Positions 5,812 through 43,583 of a DNA stretch of 64,000 bases are shown here, piece after piece. The DNA comes from a virus. The notes beneath the pieces are model-generated. The model was not told the origin of the DNA. It saw only the letters and a program-made list of their open reading frames with translations, and ran no database searches. Position 1 is the stretch's first letter; every line of letters begins with the position of its first letter. The stretch is taken from positions 1 to 64,000 of IMG/VR virus record IMGVR_UViG_3300044213_000170, one strand, 5' to 3'. Both the position numbers and the translations under genes were made by a program.

Positions 5812-6326
5812 GTGTGACCTGTAATTTGGAGAGTATATCTGGGTTCCAATCCCAAATTTGCTGCCATATGCGGAGTATCGTATTTCCATACCATAGTATC
5901 TCCTGCACGCCAATTTGTAAAAGGTTGGCTATTGTATTCTGCTATATGGCCCGGTTTCCAGTCTTCTAAAAATACCACAGCCCGCCATATGGTTTCTTCT
6001 TTACCCTGTAATTTAAAAATATCTATGTATTTTTTGTATAAATCACTGTGCTCGGGTAATACTACACCGGTGTCCATTCTATAATAACTAGTGCCGATAT
6101 CTTTCCATCCCTTACCGGAAAACATATCAATAAATCGATAGTTCCAACTAGGTTGCGGGCTACGCATATCGCACATAACGCCAGTAAACGGACCGGTATA
6201 TCCTTGCCCGGCCCATTTATTTAAACTATCAGCATCATTAAACTGTTCGTGAATGTAATTTAATGACTGATACTCGTCATCCCAGAATTTTTGTAAATGT
6301 ATTTTTTTAACGTCTTGAATTTCCAT
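5808..6326 (-). CDS. Putative 2OG-Fe(II)/cupin-type dioxygenase
   Basis: The 172-residue protein has the double-stranded beta-helix signature of aspartyl-hydroxylase-like oxygenases: PEHSDLY (an HxD pair), a later His in DTPHMAANLG, and RYTLQITG supplying the Arg that holds 2-oxoglutarate. Such enzymes hydroxylate peptides or small molecules. The gene overlaps the amidinotransferase by ATGA and its own start overlaps the dehydrogenase end by 20 bp. The three therefore form one translationally coupled block. The substrate is unknown. Confidence 0.65.
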   Translation of the reverse strand: MEIQDVKKIHLQKFWDDEYQSLNYIHEQFNDADSLNKWAGQGYTGPFTGVMCDMRSPQPSWNYRFIDMFSGKGWKDIGTSYYRMDTGVVLPEHSDLYKKYIDIFKLQGKEETIWRAVVFLEDWKPGHIAEYNSQPFTNWRAGDTMVWKYDTPHMAANLGLEPRYTLQITGHT

Positions 6327-7551
6327 AATGAATGACTTTTATGTTAGCAGTGTCTTGTAATTTGCGCCACGGATCAATAATTATACTACCCGCGACAATA
6401 TTCACATATGGTTTAGTATCTTCTTGTTGTCCAGTATATTCATATGTAATCTTTCGATTATGCGCCCAAAGATAAACTGCGGGATCATTAACTTCTGTTA
6501 CCACGTCTGTTTGATCGTCAGCCAATGGGTCTACGTAGTATACAGGTAGACCTGCTTGTTTAATATAGTGTCCTACTAACGTAGAGTAAGATCCGATACA
6601 GTATTCAACATCGGGTTTATATGCCTTACCGTGAATTACTATAGGCAGGTTTGCTTCTTTTGCAACATCTACTAAAAAGTCTGCCATATTTTTTGCTTGC
6701 ATTTCTCTGGCGTGCATTACGGTGTCGAAAATATCATAACCTACATCATATTCTTTTGCTAACCATCTAAGTGCAATATTATCTCGTGGATGGCAAGCGC
6801 CTGCATCTCCCATACCAGCAGTCATATATTTAGGACCTTGTAGTCTCATAGTTGATTTCGCTAATGCAGTTGTGACAACATCTACATTGATGTTTCCTAT
6901 ACGCATGGCAAAATCTTGAATCATATTTACAATGCCAATTTTTGTGCTGATGTAGGTATTATAGAAAATTTTAATTGCTTCGCATTCGTCCCACGTTCCA
7001 ATTTCGTAACGAGGATTATTTTGCATTACTGTGTTATACAGATCAGTTAATTCTCCGGCTAGTCCAGTTACACTACCATCTTCGGTACCGATCATGATCA
7101 TTTCAGGATTAACCATATCCCATTTTACAGAACCCATCGCAATCAAATAAGGATTGTACACAAACTGATGTTTTGGATCCAATCGGGGAACAAAATGTTT
7201 ACGAGTGGTGCCAGGCAAGACTGTTGAAATCAAAACAACCTTTTTACTTTCCTTTGCATATTTGTTGATATTGTCAATAGCGTCTAAGACTGCATCGTGT
7301 CCAAAGTCTTTTGGTTGCATATGACTGGATGGTACACTACCGTCATATCCCTCGGCGTGCGGAGTAGGAACTGCAATAAAAATCCAATCGGCATTTTCAC
7401 ATAGTTCTTCGATTCCGCAAACTTTTACTAGGTTGCTGGCTCTAGGATAAATATCATAACCCCAGACATCATGCTTTTCTGCCATAACTTCCGCGCAGTC
7501 AAGACCAAGTTTTCCAATTCCAATGAAGCCAATTTTTTGTTTATCAATCAT
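6307..7551 (-). CDS. Nucleotide-sugar 6-dehydrogenase (UDP-glucose/GDP-mannose dehydrogenase family)
   Basis: The 414-residue protein has an N-terminal NAD-binding fold (GFIGIGKLG), the family motifs FIAVPTP and STVLPGTT, and the catalytic Cys in GDAGACHPRDN. The C-terminal UDP-binding region has IHGKAYKPDVEY. These enzymes oxidise UDP-sugars or GDP-mannose to uronic acids for glycans. In a phage this may feed capsule, LPS or glycosylated-base synthesis; nearby glycosyltransferase-like genes fit. The Shine-Dalgarno is AAAGAG. Its start codon lies only 2 bp from that of the divergent gene at 7554. Confidence 0.9.
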   Translation of the reverse strand: MIDKQKIGFIGIGKLGLDCAEVMAEKHDVWGYDIYPRASNLVKVCGIEELCENADWIFIAVPTPHAEGYDGSVPSSHMQPKDFGHDAVLDAIDNINKYAKESKKVVLISTVLPGTTRKHFVPRLDPKHQFVYNPYLIAMGSVKWDMVNPEMIMIGTEDGSVTGLAGELTDLYNTVMQNNPRYEIGTWDECEAIKIFYNTYISTKIGIVNMIQDFAMRIGNINVDVVTTALAKSTMRLQGPKYMTAGMGDAGACHPRDNIALRWLAKEYDVGYDIFDTVMHAREMQAKNMADFLVDVAKEANLPIVIHGKAYKPDVEYCIGSYSTLVGHYIKQAGLPVYYVDPLADDQTDVVTEVNDPAVYLWAHNRKITYEYTGQQEDTKPYVNIVAGSIIIDPWRKLQDTANIKVIHYGNSRR

Positions 7552-7553
7552 CG

Positions 7554-8720
7554 ATGTACTCTTTAAATAATTTTTATTCTATATTATATAGCAATTTGTT
7601 GAAGCCGTCAAAATTTATTTTTGAATATTTTTATCCATTCGGATCAATTAATCCATCAGACATAATAAGCACCGCATGGATATCTCCCATAGAGTCTGAA
7701 GAATTTGGTTATACCTCTCGCCCGTACTGTTTAGCATATGATCAAGAGCCTCTAAATTCTAATTTAAATGATCTAGGTAGATGGTTTGTTAGTCCCACTC
7801 GATTGAGTTTATTTGCAAATAGCGAAAAATCAAAGGTTAAAAGTAAGTATTGCAGAGATTACGGCTATATGAATTGGTATTATTTCTTTCATGGGTTCGC
7901 AGCAGCTGATTGGTATCGAGATGCAAAATATTTCAATATCGAAACAGATAATTTTACTTCACCTTTTATGTCCTTGAATAGACTTAACCTCGGCGATAGA
8001 AGCTATAGATTATATCTTGTCAGTAAACTTAAGGATAAAAACCTATTATCAAAAGGGTTAGTCAGTTTACATTTAAACAACGACGATTGGAAAAAAGAAC
8101 TAATAAGCCCGTCTTTTCAAATGTCAAAAAATGCCAGATTCACTGTTTATCATAATCTTAAGAATCAAACGGATCCCATTATTGCAGATAAACGAAACGC
8201 AGTTGGTTGGGATAGTGCAAATTATGACTATTCTTCATTTTTATTTAATAAATCTGCTTTTTGGCATTCTGTCAGCGAAACTGTATTTTATTATGACAAA
8301 CTGCATTTAACAGAAAAAATATTTAAACCAATTGTTCATAAACGTCCTTTTATGTTAGTCGGTTCGGTAGGTAACTTAGAGTATATTAAATCATACGGGT
8401 TTCAAACATTTGATAAATGGATCGACGAAGGATATGATACTATAACAAATCACGAAGAACGAATTGATGCAATAGTTGAGCAATTAAATAAAATTTGTTC
8501 TATGTCCATAGATGATTTAGTAAAAATGAAAAACGAAATGCAAGAAGTATTAGATTTTAATTTTAATCACTTCTTTGGAAAATTTCGATATATAATATCT
8601 AAAGAATTAGTGGACAATTTTAAAGCATGTATAACTGCTTGGAATCAAAATCAACGTCGAGGGTTAGTTAATATCGATCACTGCGACTTCGAGAGAACTA
8701 TACAACTATTATCGAATTAA
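7554..8720 (+). CDS. Glycosyltransferase-like protein (paralogue of 281-1324)
   Basis: The 388-residue soluble protein shares with the product of 281-1324 the C-terminal block HLTEKIFKPIVHKRPFMLVG, SYGFQTF and IDEGYDTI, followed by an Arg-containing helix. The N-terminal half is aromatic-rich (YCLAYDQEPLN, YYFFHGF). It is one of few plus-strand genes and diverges from the dehydrogenase with two bases between start codons, so each promoter must lie inside the other gene. No clear ribosome-binding site precedes 7554. It ends six bases before the convergent cyclase gene. A glycosyltransferase role is inference. Confidence 0.6.
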   Translation: MYSLNNFYSILYSNLLKPSKFIFEYFYPFGSINPSDIISTAWISPIESEEFGYTSRPYCLAYDQEPLNSNLNDLGRWFVSPTRLSLFANSEKSKVKSKYCRDYGYMNWYYFFHGFAAADWYRDAKYFNIETDNFTSPFMSLNRLNLGDRSYRLYLVSKLKDKNLLSKGLVSLHLNNDDWKKELISPSFQMSKNARFTVYHNLKNQTDPIIADKRNAVGWDSANYDYSSFLFNKSAFWHSVSETVFYYDKLHLTEKIFKPIVHKRPFMLVGSVGNLEYIKSYGFQTFDKWIDEGYDTITNHEERIDAIVEQLNKICSMSIDDLVKMKNEMQEVLDFNFNHFFGKFRYIISKELVDNFKACITAWNQNQRRGLVNIDHCDFERTIQLLSN

Positions 8721-8726
8721 CTGATA

Positions 8727-10799
8727 TTATTTAGATTGTGCTCTGAAAACACCATCCCAATTGTCAGGCAAGCCGGCTTGACGCATTTCCTCTATACGTT
8801 CTAACCATAGACTATAATAGTTGTCCAATTGCCCATCAAACTCCCCGATTAAATCGTTAACTTGCTGCACTGCAAGGTCCCAATCTTGTCTTCGGTAGGA
8901 TGCTAACATTTCTTCATGGCCCTCTCGTGCCAATAACCATTCAGTTACTGAATTCCCCGAAGATGGCATATTTAGAACAGTATATATAGTTACCCCTTCT
9001 GTTTTTCCTTTTACTGCAATACAATCTAATTCAATGGTAAAAAATTCATCGCCGACTCGTTCTGCGGTAACTGGACCTAATACTATAAGAACTCCGTAAT
9101 TTTTACTTTGCCCTTCGAGCCTACTAGCCAAGTTAACAGCATCTCCAAGGCAGGTATAATCAAACCTCTGCTCACTACCCATGTTGCCAACCACGACAAC
9201 GCCAGTATTAATACCAATGCCCATCCCGAAAGGCGGAGTGCCTTCAGCGGAAATTTCTTTATTAAATTCATCCAAGCTCCCTATCATTTCTAATGCCGAT
9301 TTTACTGCCTCTTTGCAATGTACAGTATTATCCAATGGACTATTCCAGAATGCCATTTGAGCATCCCCGATATACTTATCTAACGTACCATTATTTTCTA
9401 ATATCTTTTTGGTCATTGCTGTCATATAGCGGTTCATAATCTTTGTCAGCCCTTGCACATCTTTCCCGTAGTGTTCACTGATACCGGTGAATCCTCGAAC
9501 ATCACTAAAGAGTATTGTCAATTCTTTTTCCTCGCCACCTAACCTTAATAGACTGGGATCCTTGACTAACTTAGCTACCAAGTCAGGACTTAAGTATGTG
9601 GAAAATTGCTTTCTGATCTGTTGTTTTTGTAAAAATTCCGACACAAATTTTACTATATAGGCGTGCAATGCTACTAATAGTAATCCTACTGCAACAAATG
9701 TGCTATCTAATAATATTAGATAATGACTGTATGCATATATGCTGCCGATTATTACACCCGATATGATAATCAATGATGCAAATATTCCTACATATACCCA
9801 TCTCATTAAACATATTAAAACGATTCCCGCCAATGCCAAAATATAAATCTCAATTTGATCTGCATCACCAGGTCTGGAAATGGCACGACCATTTAATAGC
9901 GTGCCCAAGAGACTGGCTTGTAAATATTGCGGCCATACTTCGCCTTTGGCTGTTGCAATAGGTTGAACTAATCCTGCCGCACTGAGTCCTACTACAACAA
10001 TTTCTTTATTGAATGTTGTTGGTAAGTTCATCAACGAAAACTCTGTGGGTGTTGAACTCCAGTCTATCCAAACTCTACTTATTGGGTCTATAGGTATCTT
10101 ATTTAATTTAGGAATACGAATTGCATCGATTCCAGCGCCAGTCACTTTTACTTGAATTCGAGAATCGCCCACACCTACACGTAATGTTTCCAATGCCAAT
10201 GAAGGATGTATATTTTCCCCTGTTTGAATAATCATTGGTATGCGACGAACAACACCATCAATTTCTGGGAATGTGTTAACAATACCGACACCAGCGGCCC
10301 TGTCACTTATTTCATTAACTGATGAAATTAATCCGGGATAGTTAACTAATGATTCTTCTATACCTGTTCCGATAACTTGCACAGGACTACCTGCATCTAT
10401 ATTTTTACTTTTCATACTACCTAGCGCAGGTAACACTACTGGGTATTTTTCTAAAGTTTTTTCTAATATGCTGTCTTTGTTGAATCTATCTTTTTCCGGC
10501 ATCAATACATTGAACACTACTAAACCCGCATCTCTTTTATATAAGTCTTGTATGATCTGTGCATATATGTCTCTGGGGAACGGAAACTGACCGTACTTGT
10601 CCAATGATGCTTCATCGATATTGACTGTATTTACTGGTACTCGACTGGTGGGTTGATTGATAATTAATTGATCGAAATATCTTAATCTGACAGATTCTAT
10701 AAAACTCGGATCCCATGCTCGCATAGCTAGTAAGATAGCTAGTGTAACTAATGCACCCCAGGGGTTTAGTAATATTTTTTTAATTGAAAGTTTTTTCAT
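8727..10799 (-). CDS. CHASE2-domain class III adenylate/guanylate cyclase
   Basis: The 690-residue membrane receptor has an N-terminal membrane segment (about 15-28), a periplasmic CHASE2 sensor (about 30-310), three transmembrane helices (about 316-386) and a class III cyclase domain (about 425-610). Metal-binding Asp are present in FSDVRGFT (D433) and YIGDA (D479); LGDAVNLASR gives the base-contacting Asp, Asn and transition-state Arg; VKGK supplies the substrate Lys. It therefore looks catalytically intact and probably makes cAMP from ATP. It is last in the curli-like operon behind FecR and secreted proteins. In bacteria CHASE2 cyclases are often near FecR proteins. Confidence 0.93.
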   Translation of the reverse strand: MKKLSIKKILLNPWGALVTLAILLAMRAWDPSFIESVRLRYFDQLIINQPTSRVPVNTVNIDEASLDKYGQFPFPRDIYAQIIQDLYKRDAGLVVFNVLMPEKDRFNKDSILEKTLEKYPVVLPALGSMKSKNIDAGSPVQVIGTGIEESLVNYPGLISSVNEISDRAAGVGIVNTFPEIDGVVRRIPMIIQTGENIHPSLALETLRVGVGDSRIQVKVTGAGIDAIRIPKLNKIPIDPISRVWIDWSSTPTEFSLMNLPTTFNKEIVVVGLSAAGLVQPIATAKGEVWPQYLQASLLGTLLNGRAISRPGDADQIEIYILALAGIVLICLMRWVYVGIFASLIIISGVIIGSIYAYSHYLILLDSTFVAVGLLLVALHAYIVKFVSEFLQKQQIRKQFSTYLSPDLVAKLVKDPSLLRLGGEEKELTILFSDVRGFTGISEHYGKDVQGLTKIMNRYMTAMTKKILENNGTLDKYIGDAQMAFWNSPLDNTVHCKEAVKSALEMIGSLDEFNKEISAEGTPPFGMGIGINTGVVVVGNMGSEQRFDYTCLGDAVNLASRLEGQSKNYGVLIVLGPVTAERVGDEFFTIELDCIAVKGKTEGVTIYTVLNMPSSGNSVTEWLLAREGHEEMLASYRRQDWDLAVQQVNDLIGEFDGQLDNYYSLWLERIEEMRQAGLPDNWDGVFRAQSK

Positions 10800-10817
10800 T
10801 TTAAATTATTGACGATA

Positions 10818-11144
10818 TCAGAAAGAAGAAACCTTCTTTCCTAAATTAAATCTAGTAGAGTCACTACCCGACCCAATTAAACAAGCGACTTCGTCGTTCA
10901 TTTGAATAATAGTCCAGGTTTTAGTTTTACTATTGACCATGAGCACGAAGCTGCTGTTGGTCTCAGCATCTTTACCGCCCCACGCAGGGACTTCTTCATA
11001 ATCCTCGCCTAATAAGAATTCTACAATGACCGATGTTTCGCCACAATAAATCTTCTTAGTAGCGGCAAATATTTCTGCTGCACTTGCTGTACTGTAAATC
11101 GCCAAAAGTAATGCTAATCCGCTTAATAATTTTGAAAACTTCAT
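10818..11144 (-). CDS. Small secreted protein of the curli/cyclase operon
   Basis: The 108-residue protein has a clear Sec signal peptide (FSKLLSGLALLLAIYSTASA) and a short mature domain with two Cys (KIYCGET and EVACLIG) that could form a disulfide, plus a WTIIQ strand. The ATG at 11144 is preferred over 11150 because AAGGA lies about nine bases upstream. It lies between the PA14-curlin gene and the cyclase and may be a periplasmic ligand or accessory for either. No function is known to me. Confidence 0.7.
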   Translation of the reverse strand: MKFSKLLSGLALLLAIYSTASAAEIFAATKKIYCGETSVIVEFLLGEDYEEVPAWGGKDAETNSSFVLMVNSKTKTWTIIQMNDEVACLIGSGSDSTRFNLGKKVSSF

Positions 11145-11172
11145 GATCATCGATCCTTAAAATAGTATTTAC

Positions 11173-12582
11173 TCATTTATTTCTAATGATAGATAATCCA
11201 CACCCTGCAGGATTTGTACAGGTCTGTGACAAACTATATGAATCTCCGATACCCGTCTGTACAAGATTGACAGAATTTGTTCCACCGGCATTGACTAAAT
11301 TTAATACTGCACTATGGCTATTACCAGTTTGACTTATACTGGCATTATTGCTGTCACCATATAAATTAATAGATGCTAAATTGGAATTCCCATTTTGGAT
11401 TATAGTAGAAGTATTATTATTCCCGTTAATTAATCCGTAAGACTGATTATTATTTCCGGTTTGATTTACCGTTGATGTATTTGTATTTCCCGAGATATTA
11501 ATAATCGAACTATTAGATAAGCCTATTTGTGTGTTTGTGATGTTGTTATAATTTCCAGTTACGGTAGCACCTAGAATATTGAAATTACTGGGCGTCAATG
11601 ACTCTGCCGGAATACCAATGGTGTTGTAAGTATATCCTTGCCCACTATTTAATTTATTAGATGATCCATTTAATGTAATGTCTTGATAATTGCCATGGCC
11701 GCTTTGATCCAAAGTAAGATTATTTTCACTGCTCGCTGTTACTTGTTTAATATATACGCCATTATAATTATTTCCTGTATAAGGACTAACAGGTATAGTG
11801 TTGGGACCATTAACTGCATAAGACCATGTGGTAGTGCTAGCAGTAGTACTGGGGCCCGTTGTATTAGTAGTTGTATTATCGCTATATGTTGTGGTCGTTA
11901 TTTGTGTCGTTGTGGTCGTGGTTGTTATGGGAGTTGCAGTCCCCACTACCGTATATGTGGTGTTATTCCAACCAGAATTGTTAGTAGTTGTTATAGTCGA
12001 CCCCACTTGTGAATCGGTAGTGGTTGTATTATATGTAGATGTTCCTGTTACCGTTGGCGCCCAATAATCTGCAGAAGTGGCCAACATACTGCTAGGTATA
12101 ATTTCCCAATTATTGGTAGACGGATTAAACCAATATAACATGGCCACGGCCTCGCCGCCGTTTTCATAATACCAAAAATCCACCGGCACAACTTGGCCGC
12201 TGGTTAATGGAGTAGTTCCTGACCAAAATGTTGGGGCCTGCTCTCGCCAAGCATTTACAACTATAGAATTATTAATTTTTAATATAGAACCATCATCGGT
12301 TGATGTTCCGAAATAATATGTACCGGCCGACGCAGCTTTGAAGTATCCCGTAAAGTGAACAATTACTTGATCCACTCTTCCGCTATCCATAACCACTCCC
12401 GATCCCCAATTAAAATTCACAGTAGATACAATACCAGTAGTTAACGGAGTAGGATATGTTAAGGGATTGATACTAGGTGTTGCACCGGTCCCTATATATG
12501 TGGTATAATTTAATCCGGCGGATCCTGACGCCCAGCTGGCACTTGTTATAGAAAACAACAAAAATAGTAAAAATTTTTTCAT
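11173..12582 (-). CDS. Secreted PA14-domain protein with C-terminal curlin-type repeats
   Basis: The 469-residue protein has a signal peptide ending ASWASG. A PA14/GLEYA-like domain follows (about 20-165: TGYFKAASAGTYYFGTSTDDGSILKINN, then WYYENGGEAVAMLYW in strand order). A very Thr-rich linker (about 175-260) leads to Asn/Gln/Gly-rich repeats such as NTSTVNQTGNNNQ and NNASISQTGNSHS. These match the CsgA/curlin pattern in which Gln and Asn stack in a beta-solenoid amyloid. The stop is preceded by a Cys pair. It overlaps FecR by ATGA. It is probably a fibre-tip adhesin or minor subunit exported through CsgG. Confidence 0.85.
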   Translation of the reverse strand: MKKFLLFLLFSITSASWASGSAGLNYTTYIGTGATPSINPLTYPTPLTTGIVSTVNFNWGSGVVMDSGRVDQVIVHFTGYFKAASAGTYYFGTSTDDGSILKINNSIVVNAWREQAPTFWSGTTPLTSGQVVPVDFWYYENGGEAVAMLYWFNPSTNNWEIIPSSMLATSADYWAPTVTGTSTYNTTTTDSQVGSTITTTNNSGWNNTTYTVVGTATPITTTTTTTQITTTTYSDNTTTNTTGPSTTASTTTWSYAVNGPNTIPVSPYTGNNYNGVYIKQVTASSENNLTLDQSGHGNYQDITLNGSSNKLNSGQGYTYNTIGIPAESLTPSNFNILGATVTGNYNNITNTQIGLSNSSIINISGNTNTSTVNQTGNNNQSYGLINGNNNTSTIIQNGNSNLASINLYGDSNNASISQTGNSHSAVLNLVNAGGTNSVNLVQTGIGDSYSLSQTCTNPAGCGLSIIRNK

Positions 12583-13697
12583 TTATAACTTTGACTGATT
12601 ATTATAGAACCTTGCGGTTTTCCATAAACCCCACTAAAATTCATAGCATCGGTGATTCTGTCCTGAGTTACTACAACTAATACCTTCGTATCATTTGCCA
12701 AGGAAACGGCAGCAAAATTATTGCCGTTAGGACTTAGTCCCATCCACGCCCACCCAAGTTGATTTAAATTCGGGTTATCATTTTTATAGATGCGTACTAT
12801 GTGTTCGTCTACATTAACGCTGGATTTAACTGCTACTCCAGTATCTGTTAATTTTGTCAGTAGTGCCAATGCCGAGCTTTGATCTTCTTGTTCTTTCGCT
12901 GCTTGCTTTTGATTTGCTTGTTGTTGATCTTGAACGGTCTGAACCTCAGCTTCAGATAGTGTATTATCTTTTTTAATGTCGCCTGTTTTTTGTGCAGCAG
13001 ATTTAGCGGCCTGTGTAATTAACACCCCGGTGATTGTATTGGGCGGAGTAATTAACAAATTATTGCCTATCGGTGTGTTACTTAGATTTACTATAACCGG
13101 AGGCAATGGCGGAGTGGCTGCTGTTTCAACTATAGTTGCCTGATAAGGTTTATCTAATCTTATGTTCGTTGATCCGCTATTAACATCTATTTTACCACTG
13201 CCGCAACTAGTACCTTTTAAGTTTACTGTTTGTGGTAATTCGCAAGCAGGCATTAAAAGTACCATACTTTTACCAGTTTCGTCTACTGCCATAACAAAAT
13301 CAGTACCACGGACAGTGATTGTGGCAGTCGGTGTGTTAATTTTTACACTATTGGGATTATTATGTGCAATATTACCGGACACATATCGTACTGTACCGCT
13401 AGCGGCTTTAAGACTAAGTTTACCGCCTTGAGAATTTTTTGGATCGTAAACAAAATCATCAATGACGAGACTGGAATTTTCCGTTACCTTAACGGTAGTA
13501 TTATCTTTAAACCTAATATTTACTATACCGTTTTTAGTTTCGACTTTATCGTCGGTCTCTATTAGAGAGCCTTGAGTCACTATAATAGTTTGTTTCCCGC
13601 GTTTAATTACTGCACTACCCGAGAGTTCGACTACCGAACCTATGTCGGCATAAGCTACAGTGGCCAATAGCCAAAGCAACAAGAGCCAGTTTTTCAC
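12579..13697 (-). CDS. Secreted FecR-domain protein
   Basis: The 372-residue protein starts at a GTG (13697) with Shine-Dalgarno AAGGAG and has a signal peptide (LLLLWLLATVAYA). A FecR domain follows: VVELSGSAVIKRG, LIETDDKVETKNG, VNIRFKDNTTVKVTENS and TPTATITVRGTDF. The C-terminal half is a Gln/Lys/Ala-rich helical stretch (about 230-285) and a small beta domain. FecR domains are periplasmic sensors or scaffolds. No sigma factor is nearby, but a CHASE2 cyclase is, a pairing also seen in bacteria. It likely links fibre secretion to the cyclase. Confidence 0.88.
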   Translation of the reverse strand: MKNWLLLLWLLATVAYADIGSVVELSGSAVIKRGKQTIIVTQGSLIETDDKVETKNGIVNIRFKDNTTVKVTENSSLVIDDFVYDPKNSQGGKLSLKAASGTVRYVSGNIAHNNPNSVKINTPTATITVRGTDFVMAVDETGKSMVLLMPACELPQTVNLKGTSCGSGKIDVNSGSTNIRLDKPYQATIVETAATPPLPPVIVNLSNTPIGNNLLITPPNTITGVLITQAAKSAAQKTGDIKKDNTLSEAEVQTVQDQQQANQKQAAKEQEDQSSALALLTKLTDTGVAVKSSVNVDEHIVRIYKNDNPNLNQLGWAWMGLSPNGNNFAAVSLANDTKVLVVVTQDRITDAMNFSGVYGKPQGSIIISQSYK

Positions 13698-13706
13698 AAG
13701 AACTCC

Positions 13707-14510
13707 TTAGTGACTCTTCTGAATAATATTAAAGCTACCACCCGCAGCAACTGCCTGCACATTAGCGACATTACTGTATGTACCTGTTTGACTAACATTA
13801 AACGTAGTACTACCTGCGCCGGTTTGCGATAACACCAAACTGCTCAAACTTGCACTAGTTTGTGTCAAGTTAATAGTATTGTTATCGCTACTAGTCAAAT
13901 TAATCAATGCTTGTTGACCAGCAGTACTATTTTGTTGGATAGTAACAGTGTTACCACTACCTGTGGTATAAACAGCGGCTTGCAATGCAGGACCATTACC
14001 TGTATAGTTTAATCCGTTATTATTTCCAGTAAATCTAGCATCTAATGCCGCATTATTCGTATACGTAGAAGTTGCAGAACAACTAGTTGTTAATCCACAA
14101 CTTACGTTAGCAGTATTGCTATTGCCCAATTGTTGAAGATACACATTAGCTGCATTACCAGTGATCTTCATGGTATTAATGACGTTGTTATTTCCAGTTT
14201 GATCAATTGTAACAACCTGATTATTCCCATTCAGCACCATGCTGTTAATAGCGCCGCTGGAATCACTTCCTGCTCGGTTACTATTACCATCTTGATTGAT
14301 ACTTATAGTAGGTGAATTACCTGTTTGTTGCAAATAGATAATATTGGTTGTGCTAGCATTTAAACTGGCAGTTACACCGGCTGCAAAACGAGTTGTTGAC
14401 TCGGTTGTAATGGCAGGTGCGGATGCTTGAGTAGGTGCGGTAGGTGCTGTCTGTGCAAACACCGCGCCAAATATTGTACTAACCGCTAACGATAATAATT
14501 TTTTTATCAT
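13707..14510 (-). CDS. Curlin-repeat (CsgA/CsgB-like) secreted protein
   Basis: The 267-residue protein has a signal peptide ending VFAQ and a Thr/Ala/Pro-rich N-terminal segment. At least six imperfect curlin repeats follow in the pattern x-I/V-x-Q-x-G-x-x-N (for example TISINQDGNSNRA, VVTIDQTGNNNVI, NVYLQQLGNSNTA, FNVSQTGTYSN). This is the amyloid-forming beta-solenoid pattern of E. coli CsgA and CsgB. A Cys pair (CGLTTSC) interrupts the repeats. It has a good ribosome-binding site and sits directly after CsgG, as expected for the export substrate. It is longer than CsgA (about 150 residues). Confidence 0.87.
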   Translation of the reverse strand: MIKKLLSLAVSTIFGAVFAQTAPTAPTQASAPAITTESTTRFAAGVTASLNASTTNIIYLQQTGNSPTISINQDGNSNRAGSDSSGAINSMVLNGNNQVVTIDQTGNNNVINTMKITGNAANVYLQQLGNSNTANVSCGLTTSCSATSTYTNNAALDARFTGNNNGLNYTGNGPALQAAVYTTGSGNTVTIQQNSTAGQQALINLTSSDNNTINLTQTSASLSSLVLSQTGAGSTTFNVSQTGTYSNVANVQAVAAGGSFNIIQKSH

Positions 14511-14529
14511 GATATTTCCTTATAAGGTT

Positions 14530-15342
14530 TTACTCCCTCTCTTTTTCTTCCTTGAATTTCCATAGGCCTATGCTTTCGCCCTTCTTGATAAGCTCGACAA
14601 TTCCCTGTTCGATTGCTGATCGTAAAGCATAGTTTCCTGGTTCATTGAAAGTTTGACTGATGTCAAATTCGAATGTTTTGGTATTTTGATTATAAAATTT
14701 TAATCCGGTCATACCGTCCTGGGTACTTAACAAATTTTTCTCAATTGTGATACTTGTTAATACTTCTCCAGTCTGAACACTAACTAACCGTAAACTGATT
14801 ACCACTTGATCCTGCGTATACTGAGTGTAAGGGCCGATTCCCAATGTAGCGAATCCTGATCCCCCAGTCAGTACATTAGTATTGTAATCAATGATGCCGC
14901 CTTCTAAAATAACGCCTGCTAGTGTTAATGGCGGTAACATTTTGGCTTTTTCACCTTCATAGATTTCACGTGTTTGTTTAATCATTTGACGTTCTTTTAA
15001 CAAATTCTCTAAATTCACACGTTCTACTACCGTGAACCATTGACGATTTCCGGCTTCTTGAAGGCTTCTGATTAGGTAACTTTCGGCACCTTGAGTGACT
15101 GCGGTGCTGAATAAACTTAATGTTTGACTATTTTTGCGTTGGCCGGTCAAATCTTTAAATCCGTATACTGCTATGGCAATTTTAGGACCATCTGGTGCAG
15201 GCAAAGAATCGATTTCTTTTATAATTGTAACTGATTCTTTAGGCTGATCTTTGATGCTTAATTCGGTGAATGGTCGAATAGTGCTACAACCAATTATGGA
15301 ATTTAGTATTAGAGATGGTATAATTACTTTGATTAAGTTCAT
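14530..15342 (-). CDS. csgG: CsgG-like outer-membrane curli secretion lipoprotein
   Basis: The 270-residue protein has a lipoprotein signal with lipobox IIGC (Cys19). CsgG landmarks follow in order: LPAPDGPKIAIAVYGFKDLTGQ, FSTAVTQGAESYLI, WFTVVERVNLENLLKERQ, GVILEGGIIDYNTN, GFATLGIGPYTQY, ISLRLVSVQTGEVL and a C-terminal GLWKFK helix. CsgG forms a nine-fold outer-membrane channel exporting curlin subunits. Of the E. coli constriction residues, Phe56 (before STAV) is kept, whereas the Asn55 and Tyr51 positions appear to be Leu and Gln. It lies 10 bp from csgF, with the substrate gene next. Confidence 0.95.
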   Translation of the reverse strand: MNLIKVIIPSLILNSIIGCSTIRPFTELSIKDQPKESVTIIKEIDSLPAPDGPKIAIAVYGFKDLTGQRKNSQTLSLFSTAVTQGAESYLIRSLQEAGNRQWFTVVERVNLENLLKERQMIKQTREIYEGEKAKMLPPLTLAGVILEGGIIDYNTNVLTGGSGFATLGIGPYTQYTQDQVVISLRLVSVQTGEVLTSITIEKNLLSTQDGMTGLKFYNQNTKTFEFDISQTFNEPGNYALRSAIEQGIVELIKKGESIGLWKFKEEKERE

Positions 15343-15352
15343 TTATATCTCC

Positions 15353-15841
15353 TCAAAAACTAAAACTCGATATTGGTACAGTAATGGTCTGTGTTGGGCT
15401 AGCGTTTGGAATAAATGTTCCAGCAGAATTCTTTGTGCCATCGTATACAGTTAATGTAACAGACCCGTTGGACTTAACCCATTGTATTTGTTGGGCATCG
15501 CTGACCATAAAATTACCGCTAGTACAACTTGCGCCACCGCTGGATACACAGTCTTTAAATAAATTGTTTGTTAGTTGTGTGGCCAGCTGACTGTATACTT
15601 GACCTGTAAACAGGGCCATAAATTTAGCCAGCGGAGTATTTGCTGCTGCAGACTGGGCTGCAGCAGCATCTGCTGCGGCTTTTGAGTCAACCTGAGCCTT
15701 GGCTGTTTGACGCATTTGCTCCAAAGTCAACACTTGACTAGACCAACCGTTGCCGCTGAACGTTGGATCTTTAAACTGTTGTACTAAATCGGCATTTGAT
15801 ATTATTGGTGCAAATAATAACCCCACCAAGATCTTTCTCAT
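15353..15841 (-). CDS. csgF: CsgF-like curli assembly factor
   Basis: The protein has 162 residues from the ATG at 15841, which has GGAG six bases upstream and gives a proper signal peptide (MRKILVGLLFAPIISNA); in-frame starts upstream are unlikely. The mature N-terminus LVQQFKDPTFSGNGW matches the CsgF pattern F-[RK]-[ND]-P-x-F-x-G that inserts into the CsgG channel, and the end TITVPISSFSF matches the CsgF C-terminus. An Ala-rich helix and a Cys pair lie between. CsgF caps CsgG and couples secretion to nucleation. It is the first gene of the operon; a weak late-promoter-like CTAAATATT lies just upstream. Confidence 0.85.
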   Translation of the reverse strand: MRKILVGLLFAPIISNADLVQQFKDPTFSGNGWSSQVLTLEQMRQTAKAQVDSKAAADAAAAQSAAANTPLAKFMALFTGQVYSQLATQLTNNLFKDCVSSGGASCTSGNFMVSDAQQIQWVKSNGSVTLTVYDGTKNSAGTFIPNASPTQTITVPISSFSF

Positions 15842-15889: not shown

Positions 15890-16240
15890 TCAGGTAACTA
15901 TTAAATAAACTATTAACAAATAGGTCAGCTGATGCGCCAATTGATCTAACCCAAACTCACGCCAATATCTGGGAGTTTTATTATCTTTAGTACCATAATG
16001 TACTTTAACGTAATCTACGTGATAGTGAATGAATAAATCTAATAATGCCAACATCAGTATCATTGATACTGTAATAGGCATAAAAAACGAAACAAGTAGT
16101 AGCGATATCAATGTACCGATTACATGTTCCAAGGTATGGCTCAATCCAACGAAATCTCCGTAGATTCCTTTGCAAACAGTTTGTCGATAGTTCTGGCTCC
16201 AGAAATCAGCATACCAATGCTTGAGTTGAAGCAACAACAT
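15890..16240 (-). CDS. DUF3307-family membrane protein
   Basis: The protein has 116 residues from the ATG at 16240. An in-frame ATG at 16258 sits only five bases from a TATAAATA promoter and is unlikely to be used. Landmarks of DUF3307 are visible: LKHWYADFWSQ, a His-rich LSHTLEHVIG, HYHVDYVKVHYG and LDQLAHQLTYLLIVYLIV, with three or four membrane helices. The family is frequent in phages and plasmids and its role is unknown. It precedes csgF but has its own late promoter. Confidence 0.75.
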   Translation of the reverse strand: MLLLQLKHWYADFWSQNYRQTVCKGIYGDFVGLSHTLEHVIGTLISLLLVSFFMPITVSMILMLALLDLFIHYHVDYVKVHYGTKDNKTPRYWREFGLDQLAHQLTYLLIVYLIVT

Positions 16241-16263
16241 AATTGAAAGGGCTTCCATAACTA

Positions 16264-16586: not shown

Positions 16587-16946
16587 ATGAGTAATGATCT
16601 AGTAGAAATAGTCAATAAGTATGGATTTCCGGTCATTGCCGCCGGCGGGTTAGGTTATTTTGTCTACTATATTTGGAAATGGGTAACCACAGAAATCAAA
16701 CCAGTAATAGGACAAGCCAATGGAACTCTCATCGCTCTTATTGACCGAATTCGTATGCTCGATAATGATCTTATACGTCTTAACCAAAAAGTAGAAACCG
16801 TAATGGAACTACGCGGTAAGAGTATTGAATTTGAACGTATTAAAGCTGAACAAGAAATTAACAAAGCTGCCGCGGCGGAACAACAAATCGGCAGACATAG
16901 AAAAGCTACTAAAGCCGAAATTCGAAGTTCAGCAGGCGACGATTAA
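16587..16946 (+). CDS. Holin-like small membrane protein 2
   Basis: The 119-residue protein has an N-terminal segment NKYGFPVIAAGGLGYFVYYIWKWV forming one membrane helix. A coiled-coil helix (LIDRIRMLDNDLIRLNQKVETV) and a charged Lys/Glu-rich tail follow. It is paralogous in layout to the preceding gene and its N-terminus recurs in the 30-residue ORF at 24718-24810. The topology fits a BhlA-like holin or phage membrane scaffold. It ends convergently, overlapping the next minus-strand gene by four bases. Confidence 0.6.
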   Translation: MSNDLVEIVNKYGFPVIAAGGLGYFVYYIWKWVTTEIKPVIGQANGTLIALIDRIRMLDNDLIRLNQKVETVMELRGKSIEFERIKAEQEINKAAAAEQQIGRHRKATKAEIRSSAGDD

Positions 16947-17245
16947 TTATTAATTCTTGCTAAAATTTCGTCGTAAAAGGTGTCCATTTCGCCACCGAAT
17001 TTTCCTTTTAATTCTTCACCTAAGAATTTGCAAAGAGTAGTATTATTTCCGGTATACGCTGCAATAAACGCCTTATGTAGATCTTTAAGGCGATCTAAAT
17101 CATTGAGATCAACCAATGGTGTATTTTCTAAGACACAATATGCAGTGATCGTTTTATCATCACCCACACTAAAAGTTTCTAGTTCAAGTACTATGTAATT
17201 TTCTTGAATTTGTTTTAAATTTTCATCACCCAATATGATATTCAT
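16943..17245 (-). CDS. Unknown 100-residue phage protein
   Basis: This small acidic soluble protein (LELETFSVGDDKTITAYCVLENTPL, then helices ending FYDEILARINN) overlaps the start region of the gamma-glutamylcyclotransferase-like gene by 20 bp and so is probably co-translated with it. I do not recognise a family. Confidence 0.6.
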   Translation of the reverse strand: MNIILGDENLKQIQENYIVLELETFSVGDDKTITAYCVLENTPLVDLNDLDRLKDLHKAFIAAYTGNNTTLCKFLGEELKGKFGGEMDTFYDEILARINN

Positions 17246-34003: not shown

Positions 34004-35017
34004 TCAAAGTTTGCATGCCTCACAATCTTCCATGTCGTCAAAATCAATGACTTCTGGTGGTGCTTCAATATCATCTTGTACTTTGGCTCCCTGCTTATTA
34101 ATAAGTGAGTAATAAAAAGTTTTGGTTCCGTAATAATGTGCCATCATCAAGTTTTTAGCAACCAATGTCGTTGGAACTTTTCTGTCAGGAAAATGTGCCG
34201 GATTGTAGAAAGTATTTACAGATATTGCCTGATCAACATATGCTTGTAATACAGCCGATGTTTTTAGATACCCGACACAATCTGTTTGATCCCACATCAA
34301 TTGATATTTGTTTTTCAATTTGTGATATTCTGGAACAACTTGTGTAAATGATCCTGCTTTGCTTTCTTTAACTGTAATTAAACTCATTGGCATTTCTATG
34401 CCGTTAGTGCTATTAATAACGACACTACTAGATTCTACAGGAGCAATCGCCATTTGTGTAGCATTACGGACACCATATTCTTTCATCTGAATTCTCAGTG
34501 ATTCCCAATCCAATTCCGGTGCAAAGTTTGCTAGTTCATTTACACCTGCGGCACGTACTTCCCACGGGAATGTACCTTGTCCATATCTAGTTTTGTCACT
34601 GTCTAAACATTTACCACGCTCTTTTGCTAACTCAACCGATGCCTCTGTTAAATAGTAGGCTTGATGTTCCATCCAAGTTTTTACATCTTGCAACGCATCT
34701 TTATCACCATACTTATAATCTCGCTTGGCGTGCCAATACGCTAAGTTAGTGACACCAATACCTAGCGGACGGATTTCGTCATTGCTTAATTTACTTTGGA
34801 TACTTAGAAAATCTTGATAGTCCAAAATATTATTGAGACTGCGGTGAAGAATACGACAGGCACGACGCATATCTTCCGGGTTACGGAAGGCACCCCAATT
34901 GATAGAGCCGAGTGTGCAAAGAGCCACTCTGCCCTCCGCTTCATCAATCTCAAAATATTCGTATTCATCATCTAACTCTTCGGGTAGATATTCTATTTCT
35001 TCATATAGTTCGTTCAT
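34004..35017 (-). CDS. nrdA-C: Ribonucleotide reductase NrdA, C-terminal piece
   Basis: The 337-residue protein corresponds to the C-terminal 45 percent of class Ia NrdA. It contains VALCTLGSINWGAF (second active-site Cys, E. coli C462), GIGVTNLAYW, PVESSSVVINSTNGIEMP, ISVNTFYNP and the tail CEACKL that takes electrons from glutaredoxin. It begins with an added or extended acidic segment rich in Glu, Asp and Tyr. It must pair with the N-terminal piece at 35025-36494 to be active. Confidence 0.93.
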   Translation of the reverse strand: MNELYEEIEYLPEELDDEYEYFEIDEAEGRVALCTLGSINWGAFRNPEDMRRACRILHRSLNNILDYQDFLSIQSKLSNDEIRPLGIGVTNLAYWHAKRDYKYGDKDALQDVKTWMEHQAYYLTEASVELAKERGKCLDSDKTRYGQGTFPWEVRAAGVNELANFAPELDWESLRIQMKEYGVRNATQMAIAPVESSSVVINSTNGIEMPMSLITVKESKAGSFTQVVPEYHKLKNKYQLMWDQTDCVGYLKTSAVLQAYVDQAISVNTFYNPAHFPDRKVPTTLVAKNLMMAHYYGTKTFYYSLINKQGAKVQDDIEAPPEVIDFDDMEDCEACKL

Positions 35018-35024
35018 TATTCAT

Positions 35025-36494
35025 CTACCTTATCTTCCTGATGTTAACAATGTCATTTGATTTTGTTTTCATAAACTCGTCTACATTGGACTTTTTAACT
35101 CTAATCAACTTTCGTTCAGAATTCATTCGCTTGAAACTCTTGGTGGGCAAAAGGATTTCGCAACATAAATTCGACTGATAAATCTTATGATATTCAGGAT
35201 CAAACGGACCTTGATTCATTACATTGTCTATGAACACAAGATAGATACGTCCGGTGTCTGTACGTTCTTTTAAAATGCCGCCTTTGAATACTTCTTCTGC
35301 TGACATAACTTTTTTACGCAAGCCCGATTGTTTTTCATATTTTGTATATAATTGTTCAAACAACTGAGTATCTCTGTAAAATGCTTCGTACAAGTCAGGT
35401 ACTTCGTTGGGATCAAAGAAAGTAATATTTTCTTTATTTTTAAAGCGGCGCCAAAAGAAGGCACTTAATACAACGCCATAGTCCATATGACGTACACGTG
35501 TTTCTTCCGTACCTTGATTATTCTTTAGAACGATAAGATCATCAAATTGATGATGCCAAATTGGATAAAATACTGTGGCGCTGGCATTACGTATACCACC
35601 CTGACTACAACTTCGTAGATCGCCGAACCATTTCTTTAAGAATGGTATCATACCTGTATGCATAATTTCCCCGCCACGAATAGGACTACCAAGCGGACGT
35701 AAGCGACCAATCTCTAATCCTATGCCAGCACGTTTGCTGGCATACTTGGCCATCATTTCGCCCGAAGCAAAGATACTATCAAGATCGTCGTCACTGCGAA
35801 TGAGAACACAACTGCTAAACTGTTTAGTTGGAGTTCCAAGGCCAGCAAGCACAGGAGTAGCGAGAGTGAAAAGACCATCGGACGCCGCATGGTAATACTC
35901 TTTAATGTATCGCATCCTTGCTGTGTTAGGTTCTTCTTTGTGAAATACTGTTGCAGCCGCGACCATATATCTAATTTGGGGAGTTTCATATGTTTCCTTA
36001 GTAGCACGATTTCTAACTAGATATTTTTCAATTAACTGTTCAATCGCAGCATAGCTATATTGTTCGTCCTTCTCATGGTCCAACATGGCGTTCATTTTAT
36101 CCCAGTCTTCTTTTGTATACCACTCAAGAAGTTCAGGAGTATATAATCCTACGCTTACATTTTTTTTAACAATCTCATATATGTGTGGTACTTCGTAGTC
36201 GCCGTAGACATCTTTGCGTAACATACTAAGACGTTGTTTACCGGCCACATATTGATAATTTGTATGTCCTACTTCGGGGTTATTTTCTACGTCGATTAAA
36301 TCGACTATAGCTCGCAGTGTTATTTCATCTATTTCTCGTGTAGTGATATTATCATAAAATTGAGGATGACTTTTAATTTCGATCATACTCTGACTTACAT
36401 CTGCTACACCTCTACAAACTTTTTGAACTTGTGCTTGCCACTTTTCAACCGACAATGGTTCTTTATTGCCTGAACGTTTTACTACTTGAATCAT
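35025..36494 (-). CDS. nrdA-N: Ribonucleotide reductase NrdA, N-terminal piece
   Basis: The 489-residue protein begins with an ATP-cone (VVKRSGNKEPLSVEKWQAQV) and holds SSCVLIRSDDDLDSI (E. coli C225), GIGLEIGRLR and QSNLCCEILLPTK (thiyl-radical Cys C439 and Glu). It then ends with a non-homologous basic tail rich in Lys and Arg and stops with TAG, seven bases before the C-terminal piece. All N-side catalytic residues are present. Confidence 0.93.
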   Translation of the reverse strand: MIQVVKRSGNKEPLSVEKWQAQVQKVCRGVADVSQSMIEIKSHPQFYDNITTREIDEITLRAIVDLIDVENNPEVGHTNYQYVAGKQRLSMLRKDVYGDYEVPHIYEIVKKNVSVGLYTPELLEWYTKEDWDKMNAMLDHEKDEQYSYAAIEQLIEKYLVRNRATKETYETPQIRYMVAAATVFHKEEPNTARMRYIKEYYHAASDGLFTLATPVLAGLGTPTKQFSSCVLIRSDDDLDSIFASGEMMAKYASKRAGIGLEIGRLRPLGSPIRGGEIMHTGMIPFLKKWFGDLRSCSQGGIRNASATVFYPIWHHQFDDLIVLKNNQGTEETRVRHMDYGVVLSAFFWRRFKNKENITFFDPNEVPDLYEAFYRDTQLFEQLYTKYEKQSGLRKKVMSAEEVFKGGILKERTDTGRIYLVFIDNVMNQGPFDPEYHKIYQSNLCCEILLPTKSFKRMNSERKLIRVKKSNVDEFMKTKSNDIVNIRKIR

Positions 36495-42218: not shown

Positions 42219-43583
42219 TTAGTCTTTTTTCCACTGTTTTGTGGCGGTAAAGTTCTGCTTACTAAATTCTAATCTATCTACTAATTTTACTGCCCCGCCG
42301 TCATGACCAATGGCAACAAATCCTTCAGGTGCAGTTACTTTGTATCCGTCGTCTGTTTTAATAAACGTTCCGATACTCTCGACCTGTTGAATCTTACTGA
42401 GAATAGCTAGTTTTACTTCAATGATTCGTTTATATATAGCTAATACACCTAATAGTGTATTGCTATTATCTTCCATAAATTCTTCGTTTAAAACAATCTT
42501 TTCAATCCTGCGTAAAACTGCTACTTTAACTCCGCTGTCGACTAATGCGGTGTCCAACTGTTTTCTGGCAGAAGGCTCACGTGTGGCCATATATTGATGA
42601 ATTAAGTCTTCTTGTGGTTCTGTAAATTGACTTTGTTTCATTAGATCGTCGATGTCTTTTTCCATCTTACCACGATAATATGACATAAACTCTTGTAGGA
42701 ATTTAGTAGGCTCGCCTGTTTGTTCTCCGCCGCGAACTTTATTGTTGATGAATGGTTTAATATATTGACTGAATTCTGTGTTATTTAAAACAACATTAAA
42801 TTTTTCAGGACTAATCTTCTTTAATGTGTTGGCCGCTGCCCCCAATGTTCTGCCAATCGCACTATTTTCATCTGGGGTTAAACTTGCAATTCCCGTCAAA
42901 TCTTTATATGTTGCATCATCGAACCATACATCAGCATTGGGTTGTAATCCAGCTACACTTGCACCAAAACTGGCTCTCATTTCAGGTAAATTGGGACCTT
43001 CGTACTGGGTATGAAATATAATTCCCAATTTAGCACGAGCGATACGTTTACCTAACTCACTGGCTACAGGTACTGCGTATGTTATGGTATTGGGTTGAAA
43101 TACATGGCAGGGTTCACCATTGATGTCGACGGTTTGTAAGTCACCTTCTGTAAACATCAAATCCCCTTGTAACACATTGCCTATTCCTAATTTAGGCAAA
43201 TATTTTAGTGCTGCTTCTAATTTAGCCGCAAGACCTTCTTGTTGAGAATAAAATTTACGAATATCCGCAGATGACTTACACGCCTTGGGCTCAGTTTTAG
43301 CAAATACACTTTTTGTACCTACAAAAAACTTACCGTCCGCGGGATCTACTCCGCAAATAATTGCAGGTGCTCCGTCCCATTTAACTGTTACTTTTGTGTT
43401 AGTGCCTATGCCGTCGGCAAACATCTTACGTAGGCCTTCACAGTAGCTCAATGCTCGTTGTGCACCTTGATAGCCTTCGTTAAACACTAAATCTTCAATG
43501 TGTTCTAAGTGTACATTTTTGCCCTCTTTGCTTTCAAAGAGTTGCCATTGGGGTATTGACTTTTTAATTTCAAATAATTTCAT
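42219..43583 (-). CDS. DUF6267-like protein with ligase/nucleotidyltransferase motifs
   Basis: The 454-residue protein is of a type conserved in T4-like marine phages. I read a covalent-nucleotidyltransferase pattern: motif I VKWDGAP (Lys68), FFVGTKSVF near 86-94, LQGDLMF near 138-144, and near the C-terminus PEGFVAIG plus AVKLVDR, matching motifs IV and V of DNA/RNA ligases and capping enzymes. A roughly 270-residue helical insertion separates the halves. A ligase-like activity is inference. It overlaps the next gene by four bases. Confidence 0.7.
   Translation of the reverse strand: MKLFEIKKSIPQWQLFESKEGKNVHLEHIEDLVFNEGYQGAQRALSYCEGLRKMFADGIGTNTKVTVKWDGAPAIICGVDPADGKFFVGTKSVFAKTEPKACKSSADIRKFYSQQEGLAAKLEAALKYLPKLGIGNVLQGDLMFTEGDLQTVDINGEPCHVFQPNTITYAVPVASELGKRIARAKLGIIFHTQYEGPNLPEMRASFGASVAGLQPNADVWFDDATYKDLTGIASLTPDENSAIGRTLGAAANTLKKISPEKFNVVLNNTEFSQYIKPFINNKVRGGEQTGEPTKFLQEFMSYYRGKMEKDIDDLMKQSQFTEPQEDLIHQYMATREPSARKQLDTALVDSGVKVAVLRRIEKIVLNEEFMEDNSNTLLGVLAIYKRIIEVKLAILSKIQQVESIGTFIKTDDGYKVTAPEGFVAIGHDGGAVKLVDRLEFSKQNFTATKQWKKD

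What the first reader, a model, noticed from the sequence alone, without database searches (positions are those of the whole stretch)
8727..15841. Phage-borne curli-type operon with fibre subunits, FecR and a nucleotide cyclase
Seven collinear genes encode CsgF, CsgG, a curlin-repeat protein, FecR, a PA14-curlin hybrid, a small secreted protein and a CHASE2 cyclase. CsgG/CsgF pairs have been reported in pelagimyophages, as far as I know without curlin substrates or a signalling arm. Here pore, cap, substrates, periplasmic sensor and cyclase sit in one unit. The infected cell might display amyloid fibres, change permeability or signal by cAMP.
Basis: partly seen in the sequence, partly recalled or inferred. 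Interest (0 to 1): 0.92.

Follow-up and report, generated by a model that had tools for sequence, protein, structure and literature searches.

The report
Jumbo-phage curli module with lectin heads
A large bacteriophage carries a compact set of genes that should let the infected bacterium secrete sticky amyloid (curli-type) fibres tipped with a sugar-binding domain and report on them through a membrane cAMP enzyme; the basic gene set was already known from marine phages, but the exchangeable sugar-binding heads and the jumbo-phage home are new.

Summary
In detail: seven tightly packed collinear genes encode CsgF, CsgG, a curlin-type subunit, FecR, a PA14-curlin hybrid, a small secreted protein and a CHASE2 adenylate cyclase, on a contig that also carries phage terminase, tail and replication genes. 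The novelty claim is not right. Wittmers et al. 2022 (PMC9599517) described CsgF-CsgG-CsgA/B-FecR-(CsgA/B)-adenylate cyclase in pelagiphages, and cultured phages HTVC008M and Melnitz carry it in the same order, HTVC008M even with an unannotated PA14 head. What is new here: (1) the window's phage belongs to a PA5oct-like jumbo lineage; relatives on 250-383 kb contigs carry the module. (2) The second curlin is modular: in 64 phages its last 150 residues form one family, while its first 150 fall into nine unrelated groups (PA14 lectin, F5/8 type C, others). Bacterial curlins and phage curlin 1 have no such head. (3) FecR and cyclase accompany phage CsgG in 39/39 and 36/39 loci, but 0/15 closest bacterial curli loci. 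(4) The phage FecR ends in a conserved curlin-like strand. Best reading: lectin-headed adhesive fibres with a FecR-CHASE2 monitor that makes cAMP. Function is inferred. The 110-aa protein is not a conserved member.

The parts
8727..10799 (-). CHASE2 sensor + class III adenylate cyclase (690 aa) with a C-terminal tail that also occurs as a stand-alone small phage protein
   Evidence: Pfam CHASE2 6e-33, cyclase 7e-20; metal Asp433/Asp479, Lys475, Asn556 and Arg560 present; across 76 scored phage homologues D433, K475 and D479 are 76/76 and R560 74/76; best solved relatives are adenylate cyclases 6fht, 3r5g, 2w01
10818..11150 (-). small secreted protein (110 aa), accessory, not a conserved part of the module
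   Evidence: no Pfam or PHROG family; absent from this position in relatives; no hit in the phage record collection
11173..12582 (-). headed curlin (curlin 2): signal peptide, PA14 sugar-binding head (about 22-170), Thr-rich linker, curlin solenoid (about 272-469)
   Evidence: Pfam PA14 1.4e-13 and Curlin_rpt 4e-8; model and Foldseek to sugar-bound PA14 lectins 6xa5, 6xac, 5a3l, 4lhk; Asp96-Asp97-Gly98 invariant in nine PA14-headed homologues
12579..13697 (-). secreted periplasmic FecR-domain protein with a curlin-like C-terminal domain
   Evidence: Pfam FecR 2e-11; AF2 mean pLDDT 87 and Foldseek to FecR/PupR signalling domains 4m0h, 6ovk; Gln369 invariant in 65/65
13707..14510 (-). curlin 1, probable main fibre subunit (267 aa), no head
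   Evidence: 25 of 40 sequences of its family alignment match Curlin_rpt; repeat tract begins near residue 29 (median) in homologues
14530..15342 (-). CsgG outer-membrane secretion pore, lipoprotein
   Evidence: Pfam 1.8e-47; E=2.5e-41 to solved E. coli CsgG over 17-269; invariant Gly18-Cys19 lipobox in ten aligned phage CsgGs
15353..15859 (-). CsgF pore partner
   Evidence: Pfam 4.7e-9; N-terminal pore-peptide motif F-x-[NDS]-P-x-F-x-G in 117/124 phage CsgFs and 0 background ORFs
15890..16258 (-). 122-aa membrane protein, collinear first gene of the unit in close relatives; a general phage protein (phrog_2470), role in curli unknown
   Evidence: 30-bp gap to CsgF

Best explanation
This is a phage-encoded type VIII (curli) secretion module joined to a bacterial-type periplasmic sensing pair. 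Shown by sequence: a CsgG lipoprotein pore, CsgF, two curlin-type substrates, a secreted FecR protein and a membrane adenylate cyclase with a CHASE2 sensor domain. Inferred: during infection CsgG-CsgF exports curlin 1 and the headed curlin 2 onto the surface of the infected cell, where they polymerise into amyloid fibres. Curlin 2 displays a sugar-binding PA14 head (in other phages an F5/8 type C or other head), so the fibres stick to particular glycans, most likely on neighbouring cells or particles. FecR, held in the periplasm, reads curlin traffic or pore state through its curlin-like C-terminal domain and passes the signal to the CHASE2 domain, changing cAMP in the infected cell. The likely benefit is to keep the dying cell in contact with new hosts or a surface.
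For: Domain assignments. Order CsgF-CsgG-curlin-FecR-(headed curlin)-(cyclase) is nearly invariant in phages; 39/39 CsgG-baited loci with at least 8 kb downstream have FecR and 36/39 CHASE2-cyclase, against 0/15 closest bacterial loci. dN/dS is about 0.05-0.2 for nearly every gene in six pairs, and higher for curlin 2, where the heads differ. Heads: nine unrelated clusters for the first 150 residues, one cluster for the last 150, n=64, with different heads even in many pairs whose FecR is 70-90% identical. 59% of phage curlin 2 but 0/21 bacterial curlins and 0/88 curlin 1 start their repeats after residue 150. FecR C-terminus: x-I-x-I-x-Q type motif in 109/112 FecR against 11/897 other ORFs; profile match to curlin C-termini scores 24-29 against a null maximum of 14.3 in 25 families. 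FecR lies next to CHASE2 genes in bacteria and in the Burkholderia biofilm operon (PMC5192318).
Against: No experiment here. Buchholz et al. saw no clumping in Melnitz infections (PMC9004378), although Melnitz curlin 2 lacks a head. No CsgE, CsgC or CsgD in the module. Pfam finds no curlin repeat among the top families of 65 FecR proteins and the profile match is moderate (probability 27-60%). About 40% of the phage cyclases carry Asp549/Ser556 instead of Thr/Asn, so activity may not be universal. Some modules lack curlin 2 or the cyclase. The hybrid model has mean pLDDT 69 with a disordered linker.
Confidence: 0.52

Rival explanations
1. Pore-only use: CsgG-CsgF is repurposed as a gated outer-membrane hole for uptake of nutrients or for timing of lysis (Buchholz et al. 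2022; uptake also suggested by Zaragoza-Solas et al. 2020), and the curlins are secondary.
For: No CsgE gate in the module; Melnitz authors found no clumping and predicted a narrowed barrel (PMC9004378).
Against: Curlin genes are present in every complete phage locus examined (64/64 with at least one, 53/64 with two) and under purifying selection; pore-only use does not explain exchangeable sugar-binding heads. The Melnitz argument rested on absence of csgA/csgB, yet its record annotates two curlin-repeat proteins.
Confidence: 0.12
2. Barrier: the fibres form a matrix around the infected cell that blocks competing phages (superinfection exclusion), and the heads only fix fibres to the cell's own surface glycans.
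For: Curli is described as blocking or trapping phages in E. coli biofilms (abstracts, e.g. PMC8346279); suggested for pelagiphages in PMC9599517; the window also carries a possible surface-sugar gene, a UDP-glucose dehydrogenase-like protein (6307-7551).
Against: Head swapping among phages with closely related FecR suggests that the target changes often; nothing here distinguishes self-binding from neighbour binding.
Confidence: 0.22
3. Two independent cargoes: FecR-cyclase manipulates host cAMP/CRP regulation by itself and merely travels with the curli genes.
For: FecR-CHASE2 pairs exist in bacteria without curli next to them; a few phage modules lack the cyclase.
Against: FecR sits between the two curlin genes in nearly every locus and its C-terminus resembles the curlins; cyclase association in 36/39 loci.
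Confidence: 0.12
4. Assembly artefact: a bacterial island joined to phage DNA.
For: None found.
Against: Terminase, tail and replication genes on the same record; module in over 100 further viral loci and in cultured phages HTVC008M and Melnitz; closest bacterial curli loci lack FecR and CHASE2.
Confidence: 0.02

Closest known systems
Pelagiphage T8SS module (Wittmers et al. 2022, PMC9599517; HTVC008M gp014-gp019)
   Same: Same genes in the same order: CsgF, CsgG, CsgA/B, FecR, second CsgA/B, adenylate cyclase. HTVC008M gp018 also has a PA14 head.
   Different: Window phage is of a PA5oct-like jumbo lineage, and its proteins are only about 26-46% identical to those of HTVC008M and Melnitz; no histidine kinase seen just upstream; the headed, modular nature of curlin 2 and the FecR C-terminus are not described there.
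Curli module of Methylophilales phage Melnitz (Buchholz et al. 2022, PMC9004378)
   Same: Same order; record annotates CsgF, CsgG, two curlin-repeat proteins, FecR, cyclase.
   Different: Melnitz curlin 2 has no head; its cyclase has the Asp/Ser active-site variant; authors stated that csgA/csgB were missing.
Bacterial curli operons of Alphaproteobacteria (Hyphomonas, Henriciella, Erythrobacter loci among L021-L036)
   Same: CsgF-CsgG followed by curlin genes; CsgG 36-49% identical.
   Different: No FecR, no CHASE2 cyclase at the locus, no headed curlins.
FecR/CHASE2 pair of the Burkholderia BiofilmReg operon (PMC5192318)
   Same: Secreted FecR-domain protein encoded next to a CHASE2 membrane sensor, linked to biofilm control.
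   Different: Output there is a histidine kinase with a response regulator, FecR has a LysM domain, and no curli genes are part of it.
PA14 lectins (RTX ice adhesin MpAFP, flocculin Flo1/Flo5, Epa1)
   Same: Fold and the Asp-Asp pair of the sugar/calcium site.
   Different: Here the lectin is fused to a curlin-type amyloid subunit instead of a giant RTX or wall-anchored adhesin.

Membership tests
Curli / type VIII secretion | CsgG-family outer-membrane lipoprotein pore | tested here: met
Curli / type VIII secretion | CsgF with N-terminal CsgG-binding peptide | tested here: met
Curli / type VIII secretion | Curlin-repeat substrate: headed curlin 2 | tested here: met
Curli / type VIII secretion | Curlin-repeat substrate: curlin 1 (13707-14510) | tested here: inconclusive
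   own sequence below threshold; 25/40 family members match; no structure model made
Curli / type VIII secretion | CsgE gate, CsgC chaperone, CsgD regulator | tested here: not met
   none among the operon ORFs scanned; rest of the genome not searched; also absent from the published phage modules and reported absent from alphaproteobacterial operons
Curli / type VIII secretion | Secreted amyloid fibres | not testable with these tools
   needs expression and Congo red / EM
Published pelagiphage T8SS module | Gene order CsgF-CsgG-CsgA/B-FecR-(CsgA/B)-(AC) | tested here: met
Published pelagiphage T8SS module | Carried by Pelagibacter myo- or podophages | tested here: not met
   terminase, DnaB and UvsW-type helicase closest to PA5oct-like jumbo phages; host unknown
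FecR anti-sigma regulators (FecIRA surface signalling) | Periplasmic FecR domain | tested here: met
FecR anti-sigma regulators (FecIRA surface signalling) | N-terminal cytoplasmic anti-sigma part and membrane anchor, with a sigma factor and TonB receptor nearby | tested here: not met
   FecR fold begins at about residue 20, right after a signal-type helix; no such neighbours among the operon ORFs
CHASE2 class III adenylate cyclases | CHASE2 domain plus catalytic domain with two metal Asp, adenine-site Lys, catalytic Asn/Arg | tested here: met
   activity not tested
PA14 carbohydrate-binding domains | PA14 fold with Asp-Asp calcium/sugar site | tested here: met
   ligand not tested

The most novel reading that the evidence does not exclude
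Phages have built a new kind of adhesive surface organelle: a curli fibre with exchangeable lectin-type heads, swapped between phages like receptor-binding domains and coupled to a FecR-CHASE2 cAMP monitor that recognises curlin through a curlin-like domain. It would let an infected cell grip chosen targets (new hosts or particles) before lysis, in jumbo phages as well as small marine ones.
Probability: 0.4. Interest if true: 0.8.

Novelty: new variant of a known kind. Interest (0 to 1): 0.6.

Why it matters
The purpose of phage curli is an open question, with pore, lysis and 'sibling capture' proposals in print and no direct evidence. Finding that one subunit carries interchangeable sugar-binding heads on a conserved amyloid body points to adhesion, and gives a direct test: what does each head bind? 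The module also offers a small, genetically separable system in which FecR, CHASE2 and a curlin substrate can be studied together; what CHASE2 domains recognise was stated to be unknown (PMC5192318). Its presence in a jumbo-phage lineage shows that the module is not peculiar to SAR11/OM43 phages.

Tried and rejected
Rejected: novelty of the gene set (published). Rejected: bacterial island or misassembly. Rejected: the 110-aa protein as a module member. T4-type late promoter motif TATAAATA: 8 hits against 10.3 expected by chance; one lies at 16264 but only 5 bp before the first gene, so nothing is concluded; consensus promoter and terminator scans were at or below chance. Rfam: no RNA family, so the Melnitz-style riboswitch/tmRNA is not in the window. 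Upstream 'cyclase' hits (e.g. window 16943-17245) proved to be only the cyclase's C-terminal tail as a stand-alone protein, and cyclase counts were redone by domain. My first head clustering used unreliable domain borders and was replaced by fixed first/last 150 residues. Pfam does not list curlin repeats for FecR. phmmer of CsgF and curlin 1 against solved structures gave nothing useful. A viral scan with the headed-curlin alignment found no stretch conserved enough. The gp23 capsid search of the record found nothing, and its controls were silent too.
Full report
OBSERVATION. The window is bases 1-64000 of a 145.4 kb virus record. On the minus strand, seven ORFs follow each other with gaps of 10, 19, 9, -4, 22 and 18 bp: CsgF, CsgG, curlin 1, FecR, a PA14-curlin hybrid (curlin 2), a 110-aa secreted protein and a CHASE2 cyclase. 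A 122-aa membrane protein (phrog_2470) precedes CsgF by 30 bp and does so in the close relatives too. Curlin 1 of this phage is below the Pfam curlin threshold by itself (E=0.14), but 25 of 40 sequences in its family alignment match the curlin repeat. The 110-aa protein has no family and is missing from this place in relatives, where other unrelated ORFs or none stand between curlin 2 and the cyclase, so it is a passenger.

IS IT PHAGE? Yes. The window holds a ribonucleotide reductase, a DnaB-like helicase, further helicases and a tail-fibre protein, and the rest of the record has a terminase, tail sheath, tail tube and head-tail adaptor. Terminase (51-52% over 99%), DnaB (53%) and a UvsW-type helicase (54%) are all closest to PA5oct-like Pseudomonas jumbo phages of about 287 kb. 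Five relatives that carry the module on contigs of 250-383 kb have terminases 59-76% identical to this one (three of those were compared over a partial ORF). One other gene (42219-43583) is nearest to cyanophages, so the genome is mosaic. The host is unknown, and the 145 kb record may be a fragment.

PRIOR ART. The combination is not new. HTVC008M has CsgF, CsgG, 'curlin minor subunit CsgB', an unnamed protein that is FecR, a second curlin and an adenylate/guanylyl cyclase in the same order; Melnitz likewise, with two proteins annotated as curlin repeat. Zaragoza-Solas 2020 (PMC7029224) reported the pore genes and proposed 'sibling capture'; Buchholz 2022 (PMC9004378) proposed a lysis-related pore on the ground that csgA/B are missing; Wittmers 2022 (PMC9599517) identified the curlins, FecR and cyclase in myo- and podo-pelagiphages and argued for a whole working system. 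I found no mention there of adhesin or lectin heads, CHASE2 or jumbo phages, and searches for curlin with PA14 or curli with jumbo phage gave no phage paper describing them. The library is open-access only, so unseen papers are possible.

HOW WIDESPREAD. After removing duplicates, 64 phage-type loci had at least 8 kb downstream of CsgG: all 64 have FecR and a curlin, 53 have two curlins and 59 have a CHASE2 cyclase. To avoid circularity I also took only the loci fetched with CsgG: 39/39 FecR, 36/39 CHASE2-cyclase. The 15 closest bacterial curli loci have 0 and 0 (Fisher p 1e-13 and 9e-11; loci are related, so these p values overstate independence). Three 'bacterial' loci (L020, L025, L037) have the phage arrangement and are probably phage contigs binned with bacteria; they were left out of the bacterial group for that reason, a choice that favours the contrast.

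WHERE THE SIGNALLING ARM COMES FROM. In the genomes of those bacterial curli loci, FecR and CHASE2 genes lie next to each other elsewhere: three times in one Erythrobacter genome and once each in two others, within about 1-3 kb, and not at the curli locus. A FecR-CHASE2 pair is also the core of the Burkholderia BiofilmReg operon (PMC5192318). So the phages appear to have joined two bacterial modules. Among 289 Alphaproteobacteria CsgF was found over the cut-off in only 4, and the listed bacterial FecR matches do not reach the C-terminal part of the phage profile.

THE HEADED CURLIN. Curlin 2 is the most telling protein. In 64 phages its last 150 residues form one BLAST family (1895 of 2016 pairs linked) while its first 150 residues fall into nine unlinked clusters with 330 pairs linked. 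Phages with FecR 70-90% identical often have unrelated heads. Named heads are PA14 (window, HTVC008M and seven others) and F5/8 type C (L042, L092); the rest are unnamed. Repeats begin after residue 150 in 59% of curlin 2 proteins but in none of 88 curlin 1 and none of 21 bacterial curlins. The window's model shows a confident PA14 domain, a disordered Thr-rich linker and a regular strand-turn series. Foldseek places the head with sugar-bound PA14 domains of the Marinomonas ice adhesin, flocculins and Epa adhesins, and the Asp96-Asp97-Gly98 motif is invariant in nine PA14-headed phages; that such an Asp pair binds calcium and sugar in known PA14 lectins is my background knowledge. This pattern, a fixed body with interchangeable binding heads, is what one expects of an adhesin, and it is not explained by pore-only proposals.

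FECR. The N-terminal part models confidently (mean pLDDT 87) and matches FecR/PupR signalling domains. There is no cytoplasmic anti-sigma part; the protein starts with a signal-type helix. The C-terminal 85 residues form a small beta domain whose last strand carries an invariant Gln369 (65/65). An x-I-x-I-x-Q type pattern near the C-terminus occurs in 109/112 phage FecR but 11/897 other ORFs. Profile comparison with curlin C-termini scores 24-29, against at most 14.3 for 25 unrelated families. Pfam itself does not list a curlin repeat there, so I rate the kinship as likely but not proven. If right, FecR can dock on, or cap, a curlin solenoid: a plausible way to sense subunit traffic.

CYCLASE. 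Metal aspartates, adenine-site lysine, catalytic Asn and Arg are all present in the window protein; across phages there are two clean types, Thr549/Asn556 (37, plus 4 with Ser549) and Asp549/Ser556 (33). The nearest solved relatives are adenylate cyclases. The C-terminal tail also exists as a separate small protein near the module in several phages, including ORF 16943-17245 here.

SELECTION. dN/dS over six pairs of related loci is about 0.05-0.2 for nearly every gene, with curlin 2 higher where heads differ (dS is near saturation in several pairs, so treat these as rough). The module is maintained, not decaying.

VERDICT. A real, phage-borne, complete-looking curli module with a signalling arm; the gene set is known, the lineage and the modular lectin-headed fibre subunit are new. 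Mechanism is inference and needs the expression, glycan and cAMP tests listed.

Noticed in passing
window 1-64000; L232:9579-11192: The phage is of a PA5oct-like jumbo lineage by terminase, DnaB and UvsW-type helicase, so the 145.4 kb record is probably a fragment of a larger genome.
   Followed up: partly
window 34004-36494: The ribonucleotide reductase large subunit is split into two adjacent ORFs (489 and 337 aa) with 7 bp between them.
   Followed up: no
window 16943-17245: A stand-alone 100-aa ORF resembles the C-terminal tail of the module's cyclase; similar small ORFs lie just upstream of CsgF in several other phages.
   Followed up: partly
L020, L025, L037: Public genome bins labelled Rhodobacteraceae, Flavobacteriaceae and Pelagibacter contain contigs with the phage-type curli module, so they are probably phage contigs.
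   Followed up: partly
L018:9839-12633: The Melnitz paper states that csgA/csgB are missing, yet the deposited record annotates two curlin-repeat proteins and both match the Pfam curlin repeat.
   Followed up: yes
phage cyclases, alignment A3: Two clean active-site types, Thr549/Asn556 and Asp549/Ser556, occur among otherwise related CHASE2 cyclases; the second lacks the usual catalytic Asn.
   Followed up: partly
L002:11152-11703, L003:12594-13583, L004:12903-15170: The slot between curlin 2 and the cyclase holds different cargo in relatives, by sequence appearance an HD-type hydrolase, a radical SAM protein and others.
   Followed up: no
window 6307-7551 and 7554-8720: Next to the module lie a UDP-glucose dehydrogenase-like protein and an opposite-strand 388-aa protein with no family, possibly surface-sugar genes.
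   Followed up: no
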